Assembly (NCBI GenBank): GCA_016841965.1 | Contig: JAEANN010000044.1 | Location: forward strand, 310,001 to 374,000 | Reading direction: 5' to 3' | Source: Candidatus Roseilinea mizusawaensis | GTDB lineage: Bacteria; Chloroflexota; Anaerolineae; J036; Brachytrichaceae | Length of the DNA: 64,000 nt | In this document: positions 3,402 to 16,954 of the stretch, one piece after another | Position numbering within the stretch: position 1 is the first letter of the stretch | How the letters are laid out: each line of letters starts with the position of its first letter | The notes under the pieces: model-generated | What the model was told of the DNA's origin: nothing | Seen by the model: the letters and a program-made list of their open reading frames with translations, nothing else | Databases searched by the model: none | Position numbers and translations under genes: made by a program

Positions 3402-4310
3402 TCAAACTTTCGAGCAATACTCAAAGAAGCCGATTTGCTCCAACTCGGTTTTCAGGTGATCGTAGTGTTGGGCGCTGAGGGTGCGCTGGGGCAGGCGCAC
3501 CGGCCCGCAGTCCAGCCCAATCATTTTCATTGTTGCTTTGGCGGCCGGCAGGCCGCCATAGCGCGCAAACACAGCGATGAACTGCATGGCGCGCGCCTGG
3601 TCCGCCTGCGCGGCTGCCATATCGCCGGTGGTATAAGCCCGCCAGATGCGATGGTACAGCGGCGCGGCCAGGTTGTAGGTGGTGCCCACTGCGCCTCGGC
3701 AGCCCAGCGCCAGCGCCGACAACAAGATCTCGTCGCGCCCGAATAGCATGTCGAAGCGTCCATCGCGCACGCAGCGTCCATAATCCATCAGGTTTTCGTA
3801 GGTGAACTTGGCGCCGGCCAAATTGGGAATGCGCTCGACGCCGGCGACCAGAAAATCGTACACCGGCAGCGCCACGCCGGTAAATGAAGGAATTTGGTAG
3901 TAATAAAACGGCAGGTCGGGGGCCGCGCCGGCCACGGCGGCGCTGAAGGCAACCAGGTCTTCGATACCGGCCGGCTTGAAAAAAGTGGGCGCGGTGATGG
4001 CGACAGCCTGCGCGCCGATGTGCTGGGCATGGGCAGCCAGTGCGCGCGCGTCGGGCAGGCTGTTATGGCCGGCGTGCACAATCAGAGTCAGCCGGCCCTG
4101 GCTGACCTGCGCCCAGCGTTCGGCCACCCGCATGCGCTCCTCGGTGCTGAGCGAGACGCCCTCGCCGGTGGTGCCACACACGAATGCGCCGGTTACCTGA
4201 TTGGCCAACAGGCTTTCAACCTGCCGGTCGATCAGATCGAGATTCAACGCGCCGTCTGCGCGCAGGGCGGTGAAAGGGGCGGCAATCAGGCCGGTCAGAT
4301 GGTGTGTCAT
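3402..4310 (-). CDS. DapA-family aldolase, N-acetylneuraminate lyase-like
   Basis: The 302-residue class I aldolase is of the dihydrodipicolinate synthase/N-acetylneuraminate lyase family, which forms a Schiff base between a lysine and pyruvate in a TIM barrel. Visible family marks are GLIAAPFTAL at the N-terminus, the GTTGEG loop (about residues 45-50), the catalytic tyrosine in YYYQIPS, and the Schiff-base lysine in GAKFTYENLMDYG. KFT rather than KxTSGD, together with the APTFFKP and HAGHNSL blocks, looks more like sialic-acid lyases than DapA. The role is therefore probably cleavage of a 2-keto sugar acid, with the exact substrate open. ATG at 4310 is chosen because family homology begins there. 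Confidence 0.82.
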   Translation of the reverse strand: MTHHLTGLIAAPFTALRADGALNLDLIDRQVESLLANQVTGAFVCGTTGEGVSLSTEERMRVAERWAQVSQGRLTLIVHAGHNSLPDARALAAHAQHIGAQAVAITAPTFFKPAGIEDLVAFSAAVAGAAPDLPFYYYQIPSFTGVALPVYDFLVAGVERIPNLAGAKFTYENLMDYGRCVRDGRFDMLFGRDEILLSALALGCRGAVGTTYNLAAPLYHRIWRAYTTGDMAAAQADQARAMQFIAVFARYGGLPAAKATMKMIGLDCGPVRLPQRTLSAQHYDHLKTELEQIGFFEYCSKV

Positions 4311-4656: not shown

Positions 4657-5346
4657 ATGATGCCGCTGTCACTTCATCATCTGGCGCGGCCGGCGCTCGA
4701 TCGCCCGGCCGGCGTCAAGCCGCCCCTGCTCGTGTTGTTGCACGGTTATGGCAGCAACGAAGCAGATCTGTTCAGTCTGACGCCATACCTCGACGCGCGA
4801 TGTGTCATCATCAGCGCGCGTGGGCCGATCACGTTGTCGCCCGGCGCATATGCCTGGTTTCGGATTGCCTTCGTCGGTGGCTGGACTGACGTAGCCGGAG
4901 AAGGCGCGCCATTCTCCGTGGATCTGGCTGCCGCCGATGAGAGCAGCCGGCTGTTAAGTCAGTTCATCGAAGATGCGGTGCGCGCTTATGATGCCGATCC
5001 GCAGCGCGTCTTTCTGCTCGGCTTTAGCCAGGGCGCCAGCATGGCCTTGCGCGTGTTGTTGAGCGCGCCGGATAAAGTAGCCGGCGTCGCCGCCCTGAGC
5101 GGCTTCCTCTTGCCGACTGAAGCGCCCTCCCCTGCGCACTGTGCAGCCCTGGCCAACAAGCCGGTGATCCTGACTCACGGCACCGACGACGATGTGGTGC
5201 CGATCGGATTAGGCCGCCAGGCGCGTGATGCACTTTCCGCGTTGCCCCTTACACTCACCTGGCGCGAATATCCCATGCGCCACCAGATCACCGACGAAAG
5301 CCTCGACGACGTCAGCCAATGGCTGAGTGAACACATCGACGCTTGA
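4657..5346 (+). CDS. Phospholipase/carboxylesterase family alpha/beta hydrolase
   Basis: The 229-residue cytosolic serine hydrolase belongs to the Abhydrolase_2 family (YpfH/EstB-like). LLVLLHGYGSNEADL is the oxyanion region (about residues 24-38). GFSQGA carries the nucleophilic serine. The catalytic aspartate lies in THGTDDDVVP and the histidine in MRHQI near the C-terminus. Order and length match the family, which hydrolyses short acyl esters or lysophospholipids. The start is one of two adjacent ATG codons. It has no operon partner, because a long AT-rich gap and a separate gene follow. Confidence 0.9.
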   Translation: MMPLSLHHLARPALDRPAGVKPPLLVLLHGYGSNEADLFSLTPYLDARCVIISARGPITLSPGAYAWFRIAFVGGWTDVAGEGAPFSVDLAAADESSRLLSQFIEDAVRAYDADPQRVFLLGFSQGASMALRVLLSAPDKVAGVAALSGFLLPTEAPSPAHCAALANKPVILTHGTDDDVVPIGLGRQARDALSALPLTLTWREYPMRHQITDESLDDVSQWLSEHIDA

Positions 5347-5640: not shown

Positions 5641-8600
5641 ATGTTTTACAAAATCATCGTGTCGTTGCTGGTTGTTTCACTTGTCCTGTCGTCGGCGCAG
5701 CCGGCCCAGGCAAGCGTGAGACCTGTTTCAGTCGCCGCGCCGGCCGCACGTGCTCTGGAAGCATTGCCTGCGGCTATGCAGCCCATTTTGCGCGAAGCGC
5801 TATCGCCCATGCCGGCCGGCGCCTCTGCGTTGGGCGCCCTCGCCAGCGCAACGGCCACACATGTGCCCACGCCTTCGGCCCGTCCGCTGGTGCTGGCGCG
5901 CGTGCAATCCGCTTACACGCCCGGCCAGCTCGTAAGTGGCACGCTCATCATCACCTACACGCTGGTAAACCGTTTGCCGTTGGACATGCTAAGCGGCGCC
6001 GAGGTGAGTGTGAAGCTCGCGCCTGGTGTCGATCTGGTCTCTGGGCCGGCGTATCTGACGTTGGCAGATGGCAGCCTGTCGTTCGCGCTGGGAGAGATAG
6101 GGCCGGCCGATGGCGCATCGGTGTCCATTGTGGTCAGTGCGCCCTCCACGCCGGGCAACCTCGACCTGGGCGCGCGCGCTTCGGCCAGCTTTGCCAATCA
6201 GCGCGTTTCTGCCCAAACTGCGCCGGCCCGGCTGATCAGCGATGCCTATGCGCCCTTCTTGGGCCAACAGCCCGAGTTCATGTTTAACGACGTGGATTTG
6301 CTGGAAGTCGCCGGCCTGACCGAACAGGACCCCCTCCAGGCGTTCGCGCTGGTGCGCGATGCGACGCGCTGGGAGGCCTATCGCGGCAGCCTGCGCGGCG
6401 CGCGCGGGACGTGGTGGAGCGAAGCCGGCAACGCGCTCGATCGCTCCTCGCTCTTGTTGGGCGTGCTGCGCACCATCGGCGTGCCCAGCCGCTATATGCG
6501 CGGGACGCTGCCGGTTGCGCAGCAGCGCGCGCTGATCGAGCAGATGTTCGAGGGCAGCGCCTCGCAGATGGGGCTGGTGTCGCCGCAGAATCAGTATGAC
6601 CCGTATAGCGACGCGAAGCTGCTTGGGATTGCTAACGATCACTGGTGGGTGGAAGCTGACCTGGGCAGCGGCTGGCAGCCACTGGACGTGAACTTCCGTG
6701 GAGCGACGGTTGGGGCGCTTTATGGCAGCGCGGGACAGGTGGTGAACAGCATCCCCGACACCGACCGGCACTGGACAAAGCTCGCCCTGACGGTGGAGCA
6801 CTTGCCGGCGTTGACCGGGCCGGCCGGCAAGCTGGAGACTTTCAAAGCATTCGAAGTGACCCTGCCCACCGCGCAGATCGCCGGCCTGCCCACGGTGATC
6901 GGCCATTTTGTGCGTTCCACCTTTGACGGGGGAGCCGTGTTCTATAACATTCGGCACTATTACACGCCGTTCATCGCCATCGGCGGCATTCGCCCAGAGG
7001 CGACGATCTATCGTGGGGACGAATACTTTGAGCAGATCACCAACTTCCCGCTGGCCAGCCAGCGCGTCACAGCAGCCTCGTATGACGTGACGATCTGGGG
7101 GCCAGATGTGCCACTGCAGACCTACCAAGACGAGGTCGTGGATCGGATTGGCAAGCTGGCGCGCCGGCAAGGGGGCACGGTTAACTCCGCCGGCCTGAGC
7201 AGCACCGAGCCGATCGTGCGCGACAGACAAGGTGTCAGCCTGTTCGTGGCGCCGACGTGGGTGCCAGAGCGCGCGGTGGCGCGGGCTGCGGGACGTTTGC
7301 AGCGGCAGGTGGCGCAGGCCGAAGTGGAAGCAGCCCAAACCAGAGAGACCGCTGCGACTCAGCCGGACTCAGAAGACCTGGAGCAGCAAATTGGCGCTCT
7401 GGATGGCGCGCTCGATCTCAGTGGGACTGAGATCGCCTCATTGAACGGCCTGTTGGCAATGAAGTCAGCGGATGACGGCACGCGACAGTACGCAGCGATG
7501 GGGAAGGTGCGAGCTTATTTCAACGCCCCACGTCTGATGGCTTCAGCCGTGGAGCTGCCTGATTTCAGCGTCGCGCTCAGCGAGACGTTGCGGATCGAAT
7601 CCAGATTAAACCTGATGCGCAGGGATATTGAGGTAGTGGCCCATCCCGGCCAGAGCGCAGCGGCGGCGTTTGGGCTGCGATTTGCGCATGGTGTGCGCAG
7701 TTTGTCAGCCGAGCATCTGGCGCTGGCGATGCTAGCTGATGAGGAGGTAGTGACCGGCACGCAGGGGGTGCAGTCGGCGATCGGGATTCTGGAAGCGGCT
7801 GCAAGAGAGGGGATTGATCTGGCGTATATCGAGCCGGGGCAGCGTAATCAGATCATGGCGCTGCAAGTCAGCAGCGATGCCAAAGCCCTGATGTTGTCAG
7901 CAGTCGAGGACAAACAGCGATTTGTGATCGTCCCCCGCCGGCAGCCGACGCAGGCGGCGCATTTGTCGTGGTTAGAGATTGATCCCGTCACAGGGCTGAT
8001 CGAAGACCAGGACGAGTTCGGCGGACACAGCGCCATGGTCGAGTACCGCATGCTGGACAATATGTGGAAAGTCAACAAGTGCAAAGCCACAATTGGTCTG
8101 GATCAACCTGGCTCTCAAAAAGTGGAATGCAAGGCCGTCGATGCGCGGTTTGCAATAATGGGGTTCATCTCTGGCTTTGTCAATCGTGTGCTTACCAGGC
8201 TGACAGCCTCTTTGCAGTTTGTGGTGGAATACGCAACTGGCAGCATATCGCCAACTACGGCTCAGCGTTGTGCCGAATGGGCGGATCGCCCTTGCTCTGT
8301 CAAAGATTATTTAAATTTCTACGACGCCAGGCTCTGGTTCGTCATCTCTCTTTGGGTGCGATTCTTTCGAGAAGCGAACCTTGGCTGCGAACAATGGCCC
8401 GACCCTATCTACGGCAGCCGGGACAACATGAGTGCCTACTGGAGCGGCATTGATTACAGCGTTGCATTCTGGAAGAGTAAATGCATTGCGCTGGCGGCAA
8501 AGGTTGGGACTCATATTATGCGCGGCCCGATGGATCTCTTCGCTGCCTTGTTTGGCAACAATTTGGCCACTGAAACGGCAGACTGGGCATTTGATGAACT

Positions 8601-11600
8601 GCTTTCTTCAAAGAATATGCTGGTTCAGCTTGGTTTTGTGAGTTACGACGCGGCAGAGATCAAGCTGCGCGTGGGCGGATTCGACCAGGGCGCGTCGGTG
8701 GCTGGCTTTCTGATCAAGAACACAGCCGGCGAAGATCCGGATGCGCTGCCGGAGAGCGTATATGACTTGACTGCTGAAGGGCCGCGCCCGATTGAATTCG
8801 CGCAAGTGTTCACCCCTGCGGGAAGTTTGAACACCCCCATCAGCCTGGCGACCGGCGCGCAGCATCTCAACATGCACAGACCATCGGCGTTTCTCGTAAC
8901 ATCGCCGGCGCAGATCGCCTGGCAGGGCGGAGAAACCACGCTGAGCAATGCCGCCCTGTTCGATTTGTCTGGCGCGCTGATTACACACGGTCAATTGCGC
9001 CTGGCCCTCAGTGAATCTGACGCGCGACTGGACAGTGGCTTGTCCTCGCTCAATGTTTCGTTTGCGGGTGTGGAGTCACTGGCGCTGTGGTCACAAAACG
9101 GATCCATGCGCGGGCAAACCGAGTTGGTAACGCCGACACGCCGCATGACACTCACCCACAGCGGGCCACAGAGCTGGATGCTGGGGAGTGGTGCGCTGGT
9201 GAATGGAGTGCGTTATGAGCGTCCCGTACGACTGGTGATCTCAGACACGACTTCCCTCTGGCGTGGCATACGGCGCGCGACGTGGCAGACAACCCAGCCC
9301 GTCGAAGTCAACGCAGGACAGGGGTTGTGGATTGACCAGGCCAGTGGCCTGCCTGGCTTTGCCTCGGCTGTGCCGATTTACCTGGGGCAATGGAACGGCG
9401 GATTGACCGTCTCCGCGCAGCCCTCGGCGCTGGGAGTCAATCTATCCGCCACAGCGCAGTCGACGCTGGCCGGCGCCACGCTTGCCACAAGCGATGGCAA
9501 CGGCTACCTGATTCAGCCAGGGTATGCGTCGAATGTTTCTGCTCCGGCTCAGCTTGGCATCCAGACGCCGCCGCATGTTGATTTCCGCTGGCTGAATGAC
9601 GCTCAACGGCGAGGGCGCGTTGTGCTCAAACCCGATCAATCGGCCCAGACGCTGAGTGGACTAAACGTCGTGCGCGGCATCAGCGATCGCAGAACCTTGC
9701 TGGCTTCGCCGCTGTCGCTGGCCATGCCGGCGCAGCCGGCCGGGCTGCAAGTCAGTGTCGAAACCGACCAGATCAATCGTCATATCTGGGCCGACTTCCC
9801 GTATCATGGCGTGATGGGCCTGCTGCACACAGTGCTTGTCACCTACACCGCAACGACCTCGGCAACGTTCGATGTGTCCGTGAGTGGCCTGCCGGCAGGC
9901 TGGGTGTATCTCAGCCGCTCGCAACTTCACTTTGCGCGGGGTGGCGCGCTGGGGGTCGGGCTGGTGATCTCGCCGCCCGTCGAAGCGTTGCCCCTGCCCG
10001 AGTCGGTGTTGCCCTTCACGGTCACCGTTAGTCAGGTCAGCGGGCCGCTGGTGGCGAGCGCCTCGCACCAGTGGATCGCGCCGGAGTCAGGCTTGCCTGG
10101 GGTATGGTTCGACCCGCGCATGCGCACAGAGGTTGGATCGGGAGAGCGTCTGGCAGGGCGTTTGTTCGTGTTTAACGCCGGCGCGATCACCGACACATTT
10201 AAGCTGTCAATGACATTGCCGATCACGCCCGGAGCGGTGTTGGCATACCCACCGACGGCAACGGTTCCCGCGCGCGGTGTTATCAGTGTGCCGGTGGCGA
10301 TCACACCGACGGCGCTGCCGGGTCAGTTTGTGCCGGTGATGGTCACGGCTCGCCCGGGCGACCTGTACACCCGCACGGCCATGACGCACGTAAAGCTGGC
10401 GGTGGTTTCGGTTGAGGATGCGGCGTTGTTTGAGCGATCATACGTGCTGCTGGAAGATGAATGCACCCTGCCGCTGGGCCGCAGCGTTTACTTCCTGGCG
10501 CAGAGCATTGCCCTGTATCGGCTGGGCAAACTGCCGCTGGCTGATGTTGAGCGGAACAGACAAAACATGCTGGCTGTTTTGCCGCCGGGGTGTCTGCATC
10601 AAACCGGCGCCTTCACCGGCACGCAGGCGATCAGCACGGCGCTGACGCTGGTTCCCACGCAGACCCAGCCGCTGGTGGACGCGCTGGACTTGCTCTCCGA
10701 GCAGGTGGAGCAGGCGCTGGACTACCGCGCCGAAATCAGCATCGCGCCGGCGCTGTCGGCGGTGCGGCTGAACCAGCCGGCCACGCTCCCGGTCGTTCTG
10801 GCCCACACCGGACGCATCAGCGGGACGTTTACGCTGGTGGTTACCGATGCGCTGGGTGCGACGCAGACGTTCACCCCGTTCCTGGCGCCGGGTCAACGCT
10901 TCACGCACACGCTGACGTTTGCGCCAATCGCAGAAGGCGAATACACCTTCAGCGCTTCGGCCAACGGGCCGGCGCCGCAGATCGCGCCGCGCGCCGAGGC
11001 GCGCGTACTGGCCTATGAGCGACTGGTGGATATTTTGGCTGTGCGCGGGACGCCGAACTTTGTGGAGACCGGTTCCAGTGCGTCGGCCCTCAGCGTGGAC
11101 GTGGTGAACCACACTCCGCTGCCGCAGCCGGTCACAATCGCGCTGACCATGACCGCGCCGGGCGGCGGCGTCTACTACACGGCTCAGGTCACCCGCACCC
11201 TGATGCGTGGCGTGACGAACGTGCCGCTGGGCACGGCGACATTCATCAACGCGCCGGCCGGCGTGTACGAGCTGCACGCCGAGCTGGTGGGCGAGGCACG
11301 CACGGCGCTGGGCGGCGTGAGCGCCGGCGCGGGCATCCGTGTCGAGACCCGTTCAGCGCCACTGCTTGTGCCGCCTGGGAATCTAACTGCTACTACCTGG
11401 ATCACCACCGAGCGCACCGTGTATGGCAGCGGCGCAACCTTTAGCGTGGGTGTGCCCATCTCCGGTGGGGTTGATCTGACTGTGACGGTGGATGCTGCGC
11501 TGCACTCCAGCAATCTCAACCCGTATGCCGGCGTGCTGATCAGCGCGCCCGCCGGCATCTATGACATTGTGTACATCACCGGCGCGGTGCGTTGGCACAA

Positions 11601-14600
11601 CGGCGGCCAATGGTACGGCCAGCTCGACATTGTGGACTTGTCGAACCGTAAGTACTACATCCTGGGCCACGGCGTCAACACAGCGCTGGGCAGCGCCGAT
11701 CCTTTTGTTGGTGGCTTGCCCACTCTGGAGGCTGCCGGCGCCTATCACGCCGGGCGCTTCATCCGCATCCGCGTGACCGACACGACAACGCTGGCCTTCT
11801 ACATCTTTGACACGGCCTTGACCGGCAGCAGCGCCAATATCGGCCAGATTACTGCGCGGGTGGTGCAAGTGGATTATCCGGATAACACTCTGCGCCGGCG
11901 CATGGAGACTGCCATGCACCACGCCACACCACGTCATGCCTTGGATGCAATCCAATGGGATCGTTGGACAGGCGCTTCAACCGACGCACATCCGCTGGGC
12001 ACACGCAACAGGAATTGCAACGGATGCCATATTCAGTCTCAGGGCATCGCCGGACTTTCGGCCCTTAACACCAAATTGCGCCCCAGCCCGGTGGACGAAC
12101 GCATGATGGAATGGCTGAGCCTGCGCCTGCGCAACTGGCAAGATAGCTCAGGCTGGGTAGGTGGCTATCATAGCTATCCCTATCAGCGCACTGCTCTGCC
12201 GACCTGGGCCTGGGCCGAGCAATTGCGCATGGAGATGAATCTAGGCCGTGCGCCCAGTCCCACAGTGACCCAAGCCCTGACGCGAGCCGTCAACTGGCTG
12301 ATGCCACAGTATGTGTGGAATAACCTTTGGAGCAATGACCATAACTCCTTCCCTTGGACTAGAGGAGTGGCTTTCTACTGCGGCGGCCCCGGCGGCTTTT
12401 CGCCGATGACGACCTACTTGATGATGAATGCGCTGCGTATTGCATACGACCTTACCGGCGAGACTGCCTATCTCAGCCGGCTGACCAGCGCAGCGATAGC
12501 TTTGGCCACTCAGGTTAACTGGCGCGGCACCTGCGGCGGAGAGCGCTATCCTCTCTTCACGGCGCTGGCCATGCTGGGTCTACAAGAAGCTGTGGATGTG
12601 ATGACCGACACGCTTCAGGTGCAGAGTGTGCGCAACGCGCTGGCTGCGTTCGAAAACGACTTGCGTGTCACGCAACAAATCACCCCCGCCGTCAACGCCA
12701 ACGACGGTGGCTGGCGCGCTTACAACCTGCAAAACGCCGTCGCCAATCCGTCAGATCCATATGTCAGCGCGATGGCGCTGTATGCCCTGGCGCGTCAGGG
12801 CGTGCGCTCGACCGATATCAATTTGTTGCGCGCCACCGAGTTCTTGCTGGACAAACAGGACTGGAACTACAATAGCGGCAACAATTACACCTCGTGGCGT
12901 GTTGGCCGGTGGTATAGCGTGTACGCTGACAGTCCGGTTGCATCCACTACCTGGGTGGACTTCGCTTTCCCCTTGATCTATGAGCGCATCGGCAGCTACA
13001 GCTTGGATGTGCTGCATGACACGCCGGCCCACGCGCGGGTGCTGACCAACACCTTCAACTTGCCTCCGCAGAGCACTGTTCTTCTGCCCGGCGGCGAGCA
13101 ACGCAGTTGGTTCTACAACCAGCCCGAAACCATGCGCTATCAGGTCATCAGCTACACCAGCGTCCTCACCGGCCTCAGGCCCGGCGAGGTGCGCGCGCTC
13201 ACGCTGGGCACCCTGGTGACCTACACCATCGAGAGCGGCAGCAATCGCATTGCCCTGCCCGGCAGCTATGTGCAGGCAGTCAAGATTGTCCAGCTCTCAC
13301 CCGCCGTGCAGGTTGTCGGGGCCGGCCACACCGCGCGCTACACGCTCACCCTCAATAACCCGCTGCCGTATCAGACGACCTACGAAGTTGTCCTGACCGG
13401 CCTGGAGGACTACGGCGTCCCGTCGTACTTCGAGGTAGTGGCGCCGGCCAACGGACAGGTCGAACAAGTGATCACGTTCGACGCGCCCGTGTGGACGCCG
13501 GCGCGCCAGCACGCGGTGCGCGCAGAGGTCAACGAAGGGCAGGACAGTGATCACGCTCTGTTGCAGGTGGTGCGCGATGTTGCCGTTGCGCTGCGACCCA
13601 CACAGCGCACGGCGCCGGCCGGCCAACCGGTGAGCTACACGGTGGTGGTCAGCGACCTCTCCGGCGCGGGCGCGCTCGTAGACGTGCTGGGCGAGCTGAT
13701 CGGCAGCAGCGTGATCACGCTGGCCGCCGGCCTGAGCCTGCCGCCCAACGCTGCGCAGGTGCTGACATGGACATTGACCGCGCCGGCGGTAGCCGGCGGA
13801 TATGCTCTGCGCGTCACAGCCCGCGGTGGTCACTTCGTGCCAGAAGCCAGCGCTTACCTCGAAGTGGTTCTGCCAACCCTGAACACGGCCCTGGGTTCAG
13901 CGACGGTCGGTGCAGGCATGCCGGCCGTGTTGACCAGCACAGTGGCGCAGGCAGCAGCCGGCCTGCCCGGAGCAACTCTGCCCGGCGCGCTGATCACGAT
14001 TCAGACACCCCCCGGTTGGCAGATTCTGCAAGCGCCGACGCATCTGGCTGCCGGCCAGGCCATCCGGCACGGTGAGGTGATTGTGCAGCCGCCAGCGGGC
14101 ACGCCGGCCGGCGTGTATGACGTGACCTTGACCGCGGTGATGACCGGCTACCCGCAGGTGACGGCGCAGGCGATAGGCCGTGTGACAGTGCTGGATCGCG
14201 GCGTAGCGGTCAGCGTGCGCCCAACGACCCAAACAGTGACGACCGGCGAGGCGTTCCAGTTTGAGGTGCTGGTCACCAACACCGGCACGCTGGTCGATCG
14301 TTTCATCGTCTCGCCCACCGGTTTGCTGGCTTCGCACACCAGCCTGGTGTTGGATGTCGGCGGGAGTGTGATCGTGCAGCGCAGTGTAGAGCTGGCGCCC
14401 GGCCAGGTGGCGCGCTTCGTGCTGGCCGGTGAGGCGACACAGGCGCTGCCGTCCGGCTTGCATCCGGCGCCGGTGCAGGCGCAATCGGTGAATGATGCGC
14501 GCGTGCGCGGCGTGGACTACGGCTGGTTGATCGTCAACGGCCGGCCAGCCTTGCGTGCCGACATCACGCCGACGTACCAGTTGGTCGAGACGCCAAACGC

Positions 14601-15609
14601 GCAGGCATGGCTGTTGCTGAAGAACGTCGGCTCGGCGGCGGCGACGCCGGTGCAGATTCAAATAGCCGGCGCAGACGGCATGGCGGCGCACGTGTTCAAC
14701 GCGCCCTACGGGATGCTGTTGCCACAAGCAGAGGGCGCTACTCGGCTGGCGCTGTGGTTGCCGCGCCCCGGCCGCTACGTGGTCACCGCCACGGCCAGCA
14801 CGCCCGGCGCATTCGGCTTGGCCGTGACGACGGCTACCGTAGAATATCGCTTCGCCGCCGCGATGGCTGTGGCCGATGGCGAGACCGTGCCCGGCCAGAG
14901 CGCGACGTTGCCGGTGAGCGTGACCAACCTGGGGACGCAGGCGATGAGCACCCTGAGCGCCCGTGTGAGCGTGCCGCAGGGGCCGTGGGCGCTGAACAAC
15001 GTGTCGGCGGAAAATGGGCCGGTGACGGTCAGCCTGAGCCTTGGCATCCTGTCGCCGGGCACGACGCTGGCCGCGTACGCGATTCGGCCGCTGGCGCCGC
15101 TGCCGTATGGCGCAGAGCAGATCACGGCCACGGTGGAGTTGCTGTTGAACGGCGAGGTGTGGCAGACCGAGCAGGCGCGCGTGCGTGTGCGCGCGCCCGA
15201 CCTGCGCGCAAGCGCGCTGCAACTTGTTGGGCAACAGGAATTTGTGCACGACGTATTGACCTACACCTGGCAACTGCGCAACACCGGCGACGCGGACGCG
15301 CTGGGCGCACAGGCAGTCGTGACGCTACCGACTGATAGCCGTTTCCAGTGGATCGGCGTGCTGACCGTCGGCAGCGGGACTGTCACGTGGGATAGTGTGG
15401 GCAAACGTCTGATCTGGCAAGGTGATCTGCCGGCAGGCGATGTTGTTGAGATCGTGTTCAAAGCCCAGGCCAGCTTTGGGCTACCCCAGAGCTTGTTGGC
15501 ATCGCCGTTTGAGGTAAGCCATGCCTGGCGGCCAACCCATTACGGACAGGCAACGTATCAATACCCCTATCGGGTTTACTTCATGCTGGTGCGCAAAAAC
15601 GCGCCGTAA
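5641..15609 (+). CDS. Giant secreted surface protein: transglutaminase-like domain, CXXCH motif, cyclase-like repeats, Ig-like domains
   Basis: The protein has 3322 residues. ATG at 5641 is preferred over an upstream TTG because a Sec signal peptide (MFYKIIVSLLVVSLVLSS, cleavage near AQAS) and a GGAG site fit it. In order: CARDB/DUF11-like Ig domain (about 65-200). Transglutaminase-like core (about 230-350) in which the usual catalytic cysteine is alanine (GNALDRSSLLLGVLR, near 263) while the His and Asp blocks (NDHWWVEADLG, GWQPLD, near 332-345) remain. A charged, probably helical stretch (about 544-597). A cysteine-containing region (about 805-985). Further Ig-like domains. CNGCH at 2126-2130, a c-type heme motif, directly before an alpha/alpha repeat domain resembling squalene-cyclase repeats (about 2130-2450, with DGGWRAYN). 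Then tandem NEW3/CARDB-like domains to the end. The tail YRVYFMLVRKNAP resembles C-terminal VYLPLV-like ends I recall from Chloroflexota secreted proteins. It probably acts in the cell surface or envelope; no function can be assigned. Confidence 0.85.
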   Translation: MFYKIIVSLLVVSLVLSSAQPAQASVRPVSVAAPAARALEALPAAMQPILREALSPMPAGASALGALASATATHVPTPSARPLVLARVQSAYTPGQLVSGTLIITYTLVNRLPLDMLSGAEVSVKLAPGVDLVSGPAYLTLADGSLSFALGEIGPADGASVSIVVSAPSTPGNLDLGARASASFANQRVSAQTAPARLISDAYAPFLGQQPEFMFNDVDLLEVAGLTEQDPLQAFALVRDATRWEAYRGSLRGARGTWWSEAGNALDRSSLLLGVLRTIGVPSRYMRGTLPVAQQRALIEQMFEGSASQMGLVSPQNQYDPYSDAKLLGIANDHWWVEADLGSGWQPLDVNFRGATVGALYGSAGQVVNSIPDTDRHWTKLALTVEHLPALTGPAGKLETFKAFEVTLPTAQIAGLPTVIGHFVRSTFDGGAVFYNIRHYYTPFIAIGGIRPEATIYRGDEYFEQITNFPLASQRVTAASYDVTIWGPDVPLQTYQDEVVDRIGKLARRQGGTVNSAGLSSTEPIVRDRQGVSLFVAPTWVPERAVARAAGRLQRQVAQAEVEAAQTRETAATQPDSEDLEQQIGALDGALDLSGTEIASLNGLLAMKSADDGTRQYAAMGKVRAYFNAPRLMASAVELPDFSVALSETLRIESRLNLMRRDIEVVAHPGQSAAAAFGLRFAHGVRSLSAEHLALAMLADEEVVTGTQGVQSAIGILEAAAREGIDLAYIEPGQRNQIMALQVSSDAKALMLSAVEDKQRFVIVPRRQPTQAAHLSWLEIDPVTGLIEDQDEFGGHSAMVEYRMLDNMWKVNKCKATIGLDQPGSQKVECKAVDARFAIMGFISGFVNRVLTRLTASLQFVVEYATGSISPTTAQRCAEWADRPCSVKDYLNFYDARLWFVISLWVRFFREANLGCEQWPDPIYGSRDNMSAYWSGIDYSVAFWKSKCIALAAKVGTHIMRGPMDLFAALFGNNLATETADWAFDELLSSKNMLVQLGFVSYDAAEIKLRVGGFDQGASVAGFLIKNTAGEDPDALPESVYDLTAEGPRPIEFAQVFTPAGSLNTPISLATGAQHLNMHRPSAFLVTSPAQIAWQGGETTLSNAALFDLSGALITHGQLRLALSESDARLDSGLSSLNVSFAGVESLALWSQNGSMRGQTELVTPTRRMTLTHSGPQSWMLGSGALVNGVRYERPVRLVISDTTSLWRGIRRATWQTTQPVEVNAGQGLWIDQASGLPGFASAVPIYLGQWNGGLTVSAQPSALGVNLSATAQSTLAGATLATSDGNGYLIQPGYASNVSAPAQLGIQTPPHVDFRWLNDAQRRGRVVLKPDQSAQTLSGLNVVRGISDRRTLLASPLSLAMPAQPAGLQVSVETDQINRHIWADFPYHGVMGLLHTVLVTYTATTSATFDVSVSGLPAGWVYLSRSQLHFARGGALGVGLVISPPVEALPLPESVLPFTVTVSQVSGPLVASASHQWIAPESGLPGVWFDPRMRTEVGSGERLAGRLFVFNAGAITDTFKLSMTLPITPGAVLAYPPTATVPARGVISVPVAITPTALPGQFVPVMVTARPGDLYTRTAMTHVKLAVVSVEDAALFERSYVLLEDECTLPLGRSVYFLAQSIALYRLGKLPLADVERNRQNMLAVLPPGCLHQTGAFTGTQAISTALTLVPTQTQPLVDALDLLSEQVEQALDYRAEISIAPALSAVRLNQPATLPVVLAHTGRISGTFTLVVTDALGATQTFTPFLAPGQRFTHTLTFAPIAEGEYTFSASANGPAPQIAPRAEARVLAYERLVDILAVRGTPNFVETGSSASALSVDVVNHTPLPQPVTIALTMTAPGGGVYYTAQVTRTLMRGVTNVPLGTATFINAPAGVYELHAELVGEARTALGGVSAGAGIRVETRSAPLLVPPGNLTATTWITTERTVYGSGATFSVGVPISGGVDLTVTVDAALHSSNLNPYAGVLISAPAGIYDIVYITGAVRWHNGGQWYGQLDIVDLSNRKYYILGHGVNTALGSADPFVGGLPTLEAAGAYHAGRFIRIRVTDTTTLAFYIFDTALTGSSANIGQITARVVQVDYPDNTLRRRMETAMHHATPRHALDAIQWDRWTGASTDAHPLGTRNRNCNGCHIQSQGIAGLSALNTKLRPSPVDERMMEWLSLRLRNWQDSSGWVGGYHSYPYQRTALPTWAWAEQLRMEMNLGRAPSPTVTQALTRAVNWLMPQYVWNNLWSNDHNSFPWTRGVAFYCGGPGGFSPMTTYLMMNALRIAYDLTGETAYLSRLTSAAIALATQVNWRGTCGGERYPLFTALAMLGLQEAVDVMTDTLQVQSVRNALAAFENDLRVTQQITPAVNANDGGWRAYNLQNAVANPSDPYVSAMALYALARQGVRSTDINLLRATEFLLDKQDWNYNSGNNYTSWRVGRWYSVYADSPVASTTWVDFAFPLIYERIGSYSLDVLHDTPAHARVLTNTFNLPPQSTVLLPGGEQRSWFYNQPETMRYQVISYTSVLTGLRPGEVRALTLGTLVTYTIESGSNRIALPGSYVQAVKIVQLSPAVQVVGAGHTARYTLTLNNPLPYQTTYEVVLTGLEDYGVPSYFEVVAPANGQVEQVITFDAPVWTPARQHAVRAEVNEGQDSDHALLQVVRDVAVALRPTQRTAPAGQPVSYTVVVSDLSGAGALVDVLGELIGSSVITLAAGLSLPPNAAQVLTWTLTAPAVAGGYALRVTARGGHFVPEASAYLEVVLPTLNTALGSATVGAGMPAVLTSTVAQAAAGLPGATLPGALITIQTPPGWQILQAPTHLAAGQAIRHGEVIVQPPAGTPAGVYDVTLTAVMTGYPQVTAQAIGRVTVLDRGVAVSVRPTTQTVTTGEAFQFEVLVTNTGTLVDRFIVSPTGLLASHTSLVLDVGGSVIVQRSVELAPGQVARFVLAGEATQALPSGLHPAPVQAQSVNDARVRGVDYGWLIVNGRPALRADITPTYQLVETPNAQAWLLLKNVGSAAATPVQIQIAGADGMAAHVFNAPYGMLLPQAEGATRLALWLPRPGRYVVTATASTPGAFGLAVTTATVEYRFAAAMAVADGETVPGQSATLPVSVTNLGTQAMSTLSARVSVPQGPWALNNVSAENGPVTVSLSLGILSPGTTLAAYAIRPLAPLPYGAEQITATVELLLNGEVWQTEQARVRVRAPDLRASALQLVGQQEFVHDVLTYTWQLRNTGDADALGAQAVVTLPTDSRFQWIGVLTVGSGTVTWDSVGKRLIWQGDLPAGDVVEIVFKAQASFGLPQSLLASPFEVSHAWRPTHYGQATYQYPYRVYFMLVRKNAP

Positions 15610-15674: not shown

Positions 15675-15739
15675 CTGGAGTCGGTTGGGCATTGCTCGTG
15701 TTCGCGCCTGGCCCACACCTGGGCCATAATGGCCATGTC

Positions 15740-16954
15740 ATGTTTCAATCTGTGCTGTTCACCAACGAGCCGTTGAGCGTGTCCGAAGTGACCGAGCGCA
15801 TCAAGGCATTGCTTGAAGAGGATGAAACACTCGCCGATGTGCGCGTGGCCGGCGAGATCAGCAATCTGTCGCGCCCGGCTTCGGGGCATGTGTACTTCAC
15901 CTTGAAAGATGCCGGCGCGCAAATTCGCTGTGTGATGTGGCGTTCGGCGGCGGCGCGCCTGCGCCGGCTGCCGGCCAACGGCGACGCCGTGATTGCGCGT
16001 GGTCATATCAGCGTGTACGAACGAGATGGGCAATATCAGCTCTACGCCGATTCACTGGCAGCAGCCGGCGTCGGTGACCTGTATCAGGAATTCGAGCGGC
16101 TGAAAGCAAAGCTGGAAGCCGAGGGCTTGTTCGACACGGCGCGTAAACGCGCCTTGCCGGCCTTTCCGTGCGTGCTGGGTGTCGTTACCTCGCCCACCGG
16201 CGCAGCCTTTCAAGACATTCTGAATGTGTTGCGCCGGCGCTTCCCGTTGATCGAGGTTGTCCTGGCGCCTACGCTGGTGCAGGGTGAAGAAGCCCCGCCC
16301 CAGATCGCACAGGCGATTCAAACGTTGAATGACCCGGCCCTGGGTTGCGATGTCATTCTGGTGGCGCGCGGCGGAGGCAGCCTGGAAGAGCTATGGGCTT
16401 TTAACGATGAGCGTGTCGTGCGCGCGATTGCCGGCTCGCGCGTGCCGGTGGTCAGCGGCGTCGGACATGAGGTCGATTTCACACTGGCCGACTTTGCCGC
16501 CGATGTGCGCGCGCCTACACCCTCGGCTGCTGCCGAGATGATCACGCCCGACATCGTCGAGCTGCGCCAAAGCATGGATGTGCTGAGCGCGGAGCTGGAT
16601 AAAGCCATGCAGGCGCGCATCGACACGGCGCGCGCCGATCTGGAAACATTACGCCGTGCTCTGCGTATGCTCAGCCCAATCAGCCAACTGACACGCTCGC
16701 GCCAGCAGATAGGAGAATTGCGCGCGCGGCTGGACACAGCACTGGCCGGCCGGCTCAGATTGTGGCGTGCGCAGTTGGATGGTCTGTATGGCCGGCTGCG
16801 GGCCGTCGGCCCCGCAGCCACCCTGGCGCGCGGCTATGCGATCGTGCGGCGCGATCGCGACGGCGCGCTGGTGCATTCGGTCGGTGATGTGGCCGCCGGC
16901 GAGGCGCTGACTGTGCAGGTTGCAGATGGCGCATTTAGGGTGCGCGCAGCTTGA
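15740..16954 (+). CDS. xseA: Exodeoxyribonuclease VII large subunit
   Basis: The 404-residue catalytic subunit of exonuclease VII degrades single-stranded DNA to oligonucleotides in repair. The N-terminal OB-fold contains VRVAGEISNLSRPASGHVYF and VMWRS. The catalytic core contains VTSPTGAAFQDI, the DVILVARGGGSLEELWAFN block and SGVGHEVDFTLADFAAD, then APTPSAAAEM. A helical/coiled-coil C-terminus ends with the GYAIVRR segment. ATG at 15740 (MFQSVLFT) is chosen because it starts at the family boundary; an upstream TTG would add an unlikely 16 residues. The small-subunit gene xseB, often adjacent, is not present here, since a minus-strand gene follows within 40 bases. Confidence 0.95.
   Translation: MFQSVLFTNEPLSVSEVTERIKALLEEDETLADVRVAGEISNLSRPASGHVYFTLKDAGAQIRCVMWRSAAARLRRLPANGDAVIARGHISVYERDGQYQLYADSLAAAGVGDLYQEFERLKAKLEAEGLFDTARKRALPAFPCVLGVVTSPTGAAFQDILNVLRRRFPLIEVVLAPTLVQGEEAPPQIAQAIQTLNDPALGCDVILVARGGGSLEELWAFNDERVVRAIAGSRVPVVSGVGHEVDFTLADFAADVRAPTPSAAAEMITPDIVELRQSMDVLSAELDKAMQARIDTARADLETLRRALRMLSPISQLTRSRQQIGELRARLDTALAGRLRLWRAQLDGLYGRLRAVGPAATLARGYAIVRRDRDGALVHSVGDVAAGEALTVQVADGAFRVRAA

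What the first reader, a model, noticed from the sequence alone, without database searches (positions are those of the whole stretch)
5641..15609. Composite 3322-residue surface protein: cysteine-less transglutaminase-like domain plus CXXCH and cyclase-like repeats
The transglutaminase-like core keeps the His and Asp blocks but has Ala at the usual Cys position. That variant recalls domains in some large RHS-type secreted proteins, so the domain may be a binder. More surprising is one CNGCH c-type heme motif directly before an alpha/alpha repeat domain like squalene-cyclase repeats, all inside a stalk of Ig-like domains. If heme is attached, this could be an electron-carrying or redox-sensing surface fibre.
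Basis: partly seen in the sequence, partly recalled or inferred. Interest (0 to 1): 0.62.

Follow-up and report, generated by a model that had tools for sequence, protein, structure and literature searches.

The report
Heme-motif ring domain in surface protein
A giant secreted bacterial protein carries a ring-shaped domain, related in fold to squalene cyclases, with a strictly conserved heme-attachment motif; related domains occur in four bacterial phyla, some inside toxin-type proteins, and no curated family I searched covers the heme-motif part.

Summary
Window 5641-15609 encodes a 3322-residue protein with a signal peptide: a transglutaminase-like domain with the Cys replaced, a beta-rich stalk (NEW3/CARDB/DUF11), and one CNGCH (aa 2126-2130). 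The CXXCH does not precede the cyclase-like domain but sits inside it, at the start of helix 2 of a complete 12-helix alpha/alpha toroid (AlphaFold pLDDT 81, pTM 0.85; Z 24-27 to squalene-hopene cyclase, drimenyl-diphosphate synthase and epimerases). Profile searches in Chloroflexota, Proteobacteria, Myxococcota and Verrucomicrobiota find a family in which both Cys and the His are invariant (19/19 in a 75% non-redundant set). The following Gln varies, which removes a complement-like Cys-x-x-Gln thioester as the family function. The genome has a Ccm operon and a di-CXXCH cytochrome; all 21 carrier genomes tested have Cytochrom_C_asm proteins. In Marinobacter and Thiothrix the module lies in RHS giants with nuclease or variable C-terminal tips. 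So covalent heme is the best reading, but a conducting fibre is not: there is one site in 3322 residues and no invariant distal ligand. Heme itself and the function remain unproven.

The parts
5641..15609 (+). 3322-aa secreted composite protein
   Evidence: open frame
5641..5715 (+). Sec-type signal peptide (aa 1-25, ends AQA-S)
   Evidence: sequence; only strong hydrophobic segment apart from aa 2678-2700
6409..6687 (+). transglutaminase-like domain (aa 257-349); Ala265 at the Cys position (6433-6435), His334 (6640-6642) and Asp349 (6685-6687) kept
   Evidence: PF01841 above cut-off; alignments
11836..12990 (+). CXXCH alpha/alpha toroid (aa 2066-2450), 12 helices
   Evidence: AlphaFold pLDDT 81, pTM 0.85; fold matches; profile matches
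12016..12030 (+). CNGCH, putative covalent heme c site (aa 2126-2130), start of toroid helix 2
   Evidence: invariant C, C, H in the family
12340..12342 (+). His2234, best but not invariant candidate for a distal ligand
   Evidence: His in 11 of 19
13972..14139 (+). NEW3 / NPCBM_assoc beta domain (aa 2778-2833), best of two stretches
   Evidence: PF10633 above cut-off
14869..15471 (+). CARDB-like and DUF11-like beta domains (aa 3077-3277)
   Evidence: sub-cut-off matches

Best explanation
The protein is a secreted, beta-rich surface protein carrying a c-heme-bearing alpha/alpha toroid as its most distinctive module. After Sec export the Ccm machinery most likely attaches one heme to Cys2126 and Cys2129, with His2130 as axial ligand, at the N-terminus of toroid helix 2. 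That is the same face on which other strictly conserved residues (Trp2106, the GGW and GxW loops) lie, and where enzymes of this fold bind substrate, so the heme would sit at the mouth of the toroid cavity. With no invariant distal ligand, the heme probably has an open or exchangeable sixth position, which suits gas, peroxide or small-molecule binding, or single-electron chemistry on a bound ligand, better than a role as one link of a wire. The Cys-less transglutaminase-like domain is a pseudo-enzyme, probably a binding or structural module. Shown: architecture, invariant CXXCH, toroid fold (predicted with good confidence), Ccm genes. Inferred: heme attachment, its position at the cavity, surface display, and any activity.
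For: CXXCH kept in all 5 Chloroflexota copies found without using the motif and in every relative from profile searches whose N-part aligns, 19/19 in a 75% non-redundant set, while most of the sequence diverges. Exported: signal peptide. Ccm operon with CcmF WWD motif, CcmH-like CPTC, CcmG-like thioredoxin, plus CcmC and a di-CXXCH cytochrome; PF01578 in 21 of 21 carrier genomes. Confident toroid with CXXCH at helix 2 and conserved residues mostly in odd-to-even loops.
Against: No invariant distal ligand. PF01578 also occurs in 9 of 14 control genomes, so its presence is weak evidence. The profile contains the CXXCH, so toroids that lost it may rank below threshold. No solved c-type cytochrome appeared among the fold matches listed.
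Confidence: 0.7

Rival explanations
1. The C, C and H form a metal site (for example zinc) or a redox-active disulfide rather than a heme site; the toroid is then a metal-dependent enzyme or binding head, as protein prenyltransferases of the same fold bind zinc through Asp, Cys and His (own knowledge).
For: Only three invariant ligands plus a partly conserved Asp-His (D2233 15/19, H2234 11/19) nearby in the loop of the same face; the fold class includes metalloenzymes.
Against: The exact CX2CH spacing is kept in all copies read; exported CX2CH in Ccm-bearing cells is expected to be hemylated; no fourth ligand is invariant.
Confidence: 0.2
2. Cys2129 and Gln2132 (C-H-I-Q) form an internal thioester like C-G-E-Q of alpha-2-macroglobulin and complement, whose thioester domain has this same fold, so the protein would attach covalently to targets.
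For: Fold match to complement C5 and C4; PF07678 TED matches three A2 members weakly and L125 above cut-off; Gln2132 in 15 of 19.
Against: Relatives with CHRV, CHRA, CHTT and CHHL keep C, C and H but lose the Gln, and the first Cys and the His are invariant, which a thioester does not need.
Confidence: 0.04
3. The protein is an electron-conducting surface fibre.
For: A heme motif in a long secreted protein; c-type cytochrome machinery in the genome.
Against: One CXXCH in 3322 residues and one in each giant homologue: far too few for heme-to-heme transfer along a stalk.
Confidence: 0.03

Closest known systems
Squalene-hopene cyclase / class II terpene cyclase toroids (SQHop_cyclase, drimenyl-diphosphate synthase, 8pak/8paj cyclases)
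   Same: Toroid fold (Z 24-26), QW-type GGW/GxW motifs and significant profile similarity
   Different: Exported inside a giant beta-rich protein, and carries CXXCH at helix 2; cyclase function not shown
Complement / alpha-2-macroglobulin thioester domain (TED)
   Same: Same fold, a Cys motif near the start of an early helix (position in TED from own knowledge)
   Different: CXXCH instead of CxEQ; Gln not conserved in the family
c-type cytochromes
   Same: CXXCH, exported, Ccm-bearing host
   Different: Alpha/alpha toroid instead of the known cytochrome c folds; no invariant distal ligand
RHS polymorphic toxins of Marinobacter and Thiothrix
   Same: Share the CXXCH toroid, with Ig/cadherin-like and RHS repeats and a NucA/NucB tip
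   Different: The window protein has no RHS repeats and no toxin tip recognised

Membership tests
c-type cytochrome | CXXCH heme-binding motif, conserved among homologues | tested here: met
   invariant C, C, H, 19/19 and in all N-parts read
c-type cytochrome | export and cytochrome c maturation genes in the genome | tested here: met
   signal peptide; Ccm operon
c-type cytochrome | covalently attached heme | not testable with these tools
   needs purified protein
c-type cytochrome | conserved distal axial ligand (in many, not all, members) | tested here: inconclusive
   best candidate His2234, 11/19
squalene-hopene cyclase-like toroid fold | 12-helix alpha/alpha toroid with QW-type motifs | tested here: met
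squalene-hopene cyclase (enzyme) | catalytic Asp-rich motif and cyclase activity | not tested
   catalytic residues were not aligned one by one
alpha-2-macroglobulin / complement thioester domain | Cys-x-x-Gln thioester conserved across the family | tested here: not met
   Gln lost in CHRV, CHRA, CHTT, CHHL forms
active transglutaminase-like enzyme | catalytic Cys-His-Asp triad | tested here: not met
   Cys replaced by Ala in the window, Ser or Asp in homologues; His and Asp kept
RHS polymorphic toxin | RHS repeats and C-terminal toxin tip | tested here: not met
   none found in the window protein; both present in L049 and L056

The most novel reading that the evidence does not exclude
An undescribed class of c-type hemoprotein: heme covalently held at the cavity mouth of a squalene-cyclase-like alpha/alpha toroid, used as an exported module in stand-alone proteins, giant surface proteins and RHS polymorphic toxins across four phyla.
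Probability: 0.6. Interest if true: 0.78.

Novelty: new variant of a known kind. Interest (0 to 1): 0.6.

Why it matters
A heme attachment motif built into a terpene-cyclase-like toroid would be a new scaffold for c-type heme. Its recurrence in giant surface proteins and RHS toxins raises the testable question of why such proteins need a heme. The minimal 355-residue member and the Myxococcota and Marinobacter homologues make the question approachable with cultured bacteria.

Tried and rejected
Thioester (C-x-x-Q) reading: raised because the fold equals the complement thioester domain, rejected as family-wide because Gln varies while C, C and H do not. A residue-level profile comparison with that domain failed: the three long toroid-like ORFs of this lineage that I picked carry no CxEQ. 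The first genome-contig scan with the single sequence found nothing; the second, with A1, was seeded on C[NLM][AG]CH[IV]Q[SGT]Q, so its 18 loci cannot count as evidence for CXXCH conservation; conservation is argued, whose profile still contains the motif. The Chloroflexota-wide search mostly caught QW repeats of other toroid proteins; the three long ORFs among them that I opened (L115-L117) match only the QW part and have no CXXCH, so I treat them as other families, not as counter-examples. No plasmid match. No paper found on a CXXCH toroid (open-licence library only). Gene neighbours gave no functional link. AlphaFold of the transglutaminase-like part was too weak (pLDDT 52) and was not searched. 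No c-type cytochrome was among the fold matches listed, which excludes nothing.

Full report
What is there. The window protein (5641-15609 +, 3322 aa) starts with a signal peptide and has no other clear membrane segment. Recognised parts are a transglutaminase-like domain near the N-terminus, NEW3 beta domains above cut-off and CARDB/DUF11-like domains below cut-off towards the C-terminus, and an alpha/alpha domain with a single CNGCH. The neighbours on either side are an esterase-like gene (4657-5346) and the exonuclease VII large subunit (15692-16954), which suggest no functional link. The genome is a 3.86 Mb assembly in 59 contigs; relatives of the same family that carry the domain are named Chloroflexi or uncultured-bacterium MAGs.

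The transglutaminase-like part. Aligned with Cys-bearing transglutaminase-like proteins of the same genome, the window has Ala265 where they have Cys (GNALD against GVCQD and GYCDY), while the His (DHWW, His334) and the Asp (Asp349) remain. Homologues have Ser or Asp at the Cys position. Its AlphaFold model was poor.

The CXXCH domain. Five Chloroflexota copies, the window included, found by whole-domain similarity and not by the motif, all have it: CNGCH, CNGCH, CLACH, CMACH, CLACH. A profile of these hits terpene cyclases in the PDB at E about 1e-14 to 1e-12. A pattern-seeded scan of named genomes added Marinobacter, Ferrimonas, Thiothrix, an Alteromonadaceae bacterium, Pyxidicoccus, Gammaproteobacteria and Verrucomicrobia (this scan required the motif). 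Profile searches, which did not require it, then found matches in 62 of 195 Myxococcota genomes, in 2 of 398 genomes of the Marinobacter phylum and in 2 of 289 of the Verrucomicrobia phylum, the query genome counted in each. Every fetched relative whose N-terminal part aligns has CXXCH, in forms as different as CLGCHIQTQ, CVACHRQGA, CAACHRVGA, CFGCHVQAK, CVACHTTGT and CISCHHLPE. In a 75% non-redundant set of 19, C, C and H are 19/19, as are two Trp of the QW-type motifs, one Gln and one Leu; Trp2106 is 18/19, Gln2132 15/19, and the best distal-ligand candidate, His2234, 11/19.

Structure. AlphaFold with 19 sequences gives a confident 12-helix toroid (pLDDT 81, pTM 0.85). Solved relatives by fold are cellobiose 2-epimerases (Z 26-27), drimenyl-diphosphate synthase (Z 26), squalene-hopene cyclases (Z 24-26) and, by Foldseek, complement C5. 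CXXCH is residues 2-6 of helix 2. Several of the strictly conserved residues fall in odd-to-even loops (3-4, 5-6, 9-10, 11-12) or at the start of helix 2. By connectivity these share one face, the one where enzymes of this fold usually hold substrate (own knowledge).

Maturation. Near CcmF (WGGYWGWDPVENKSL) lie a CcmH-like protein with CPTC, a thioredoxin-like CcmG with WASWCVEC, and a cytochrome with two CXXCH; a CcmC-type protein and a ResB-like protein are elsewhere. All 21 carrier genomes tested have PF01578 proteins, but so do 9 of 14 controls, so this only removes an objection.

Contexts of the module. It occurs almost alone behind a signal peptide (355 aa, L114/L125), in about 1000-aa Myxococcota proteins right after the signal peptide, in 2400-aa myxobacterial and gammaproteobacterial giants where the toroid is interrupted at profile position about 165-188, in L061 apparently by a Vgb/NHL-type beta-propeller, in Chloroflexota giants interrupted by about 900-1400 residues at a different position, about 123, and in Marinobacter, Ferrimonas and Thiothrix giants. 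L049 (Marinobacter) and L056 (Thiothrix) were scanned and carry RHS repeats and a NucA/NucB tip. Some Marinobacter pairs are 73-86% identical up to residue about 3740-3770 and then stop aligning (for example L049, L052, L055), the mark of polymorphic toxins. The window protein itself has no RHS repeats or recognised toxin tip.

Interpretation. A covalently bound heme c is the best reading of an invariant CX2CH in exported proteins of bacteria with heme c maturation. A metal site is the main rival. A complement-like thioester is excluded as the family function because the Gln varies. A conductive fibre is not supported: one site per giant protein. I place a heme-dependent binding, sensing or catalytic head on a surface protein as most likely. 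No paper in the held library describes it, and no Pfam or NCBIfam match among the members scanned covered the CXXCH part of the toroid.

Noticed in passing
L049, L052, L055, L057, L058 (Marinobacter): RHS-type giants, 73-86% identical over about 3740 residues, whose C-terminal tips stop aligning in some pairs: polymorphic toxin pattern.
   Followed up: partly
L014, L015, L016/L017 (Chloroflexota) and L061, L062, L064, L065: The toroid is interrupted by unrelated beta-rich inserts at two different inter-helix positions (profile about 123 and about 165-188); the inserts of L014 and L016 look like repeated carbohydrate-binding-type modules.
   Followed up: partly
window aa 800-1060 (8038-8820): A stretch with six of the protein's twelve Cys and no Pfam match; conserved in part in L015.
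   Followed up: no
L014, L017 (and loosely L013, L015, window C-terminus): Giant Chloroflexota proteins end in a short hydrophobic-Pro tail such as YRIFLPLVRNKS or YRSYAPIVLKNQ, perhaps a C-terminal sorting signal; no other ORF of the window matched the simple pattern used.
   Followed up: partly
L013 991-7803 and 7816-15858: In G009 the transglutaminase-like and CXXCH-toroid parts are two adjacent genes (2271 and 2681 aa) instead of one fused gene.
   Followed up: partly
L061, L062, L064, L065, N-terminal region: A second QW-repeat toroid-like region without CXXCH lies at the N-terminus of the same 2400-aa proteins.
   Followed up: no
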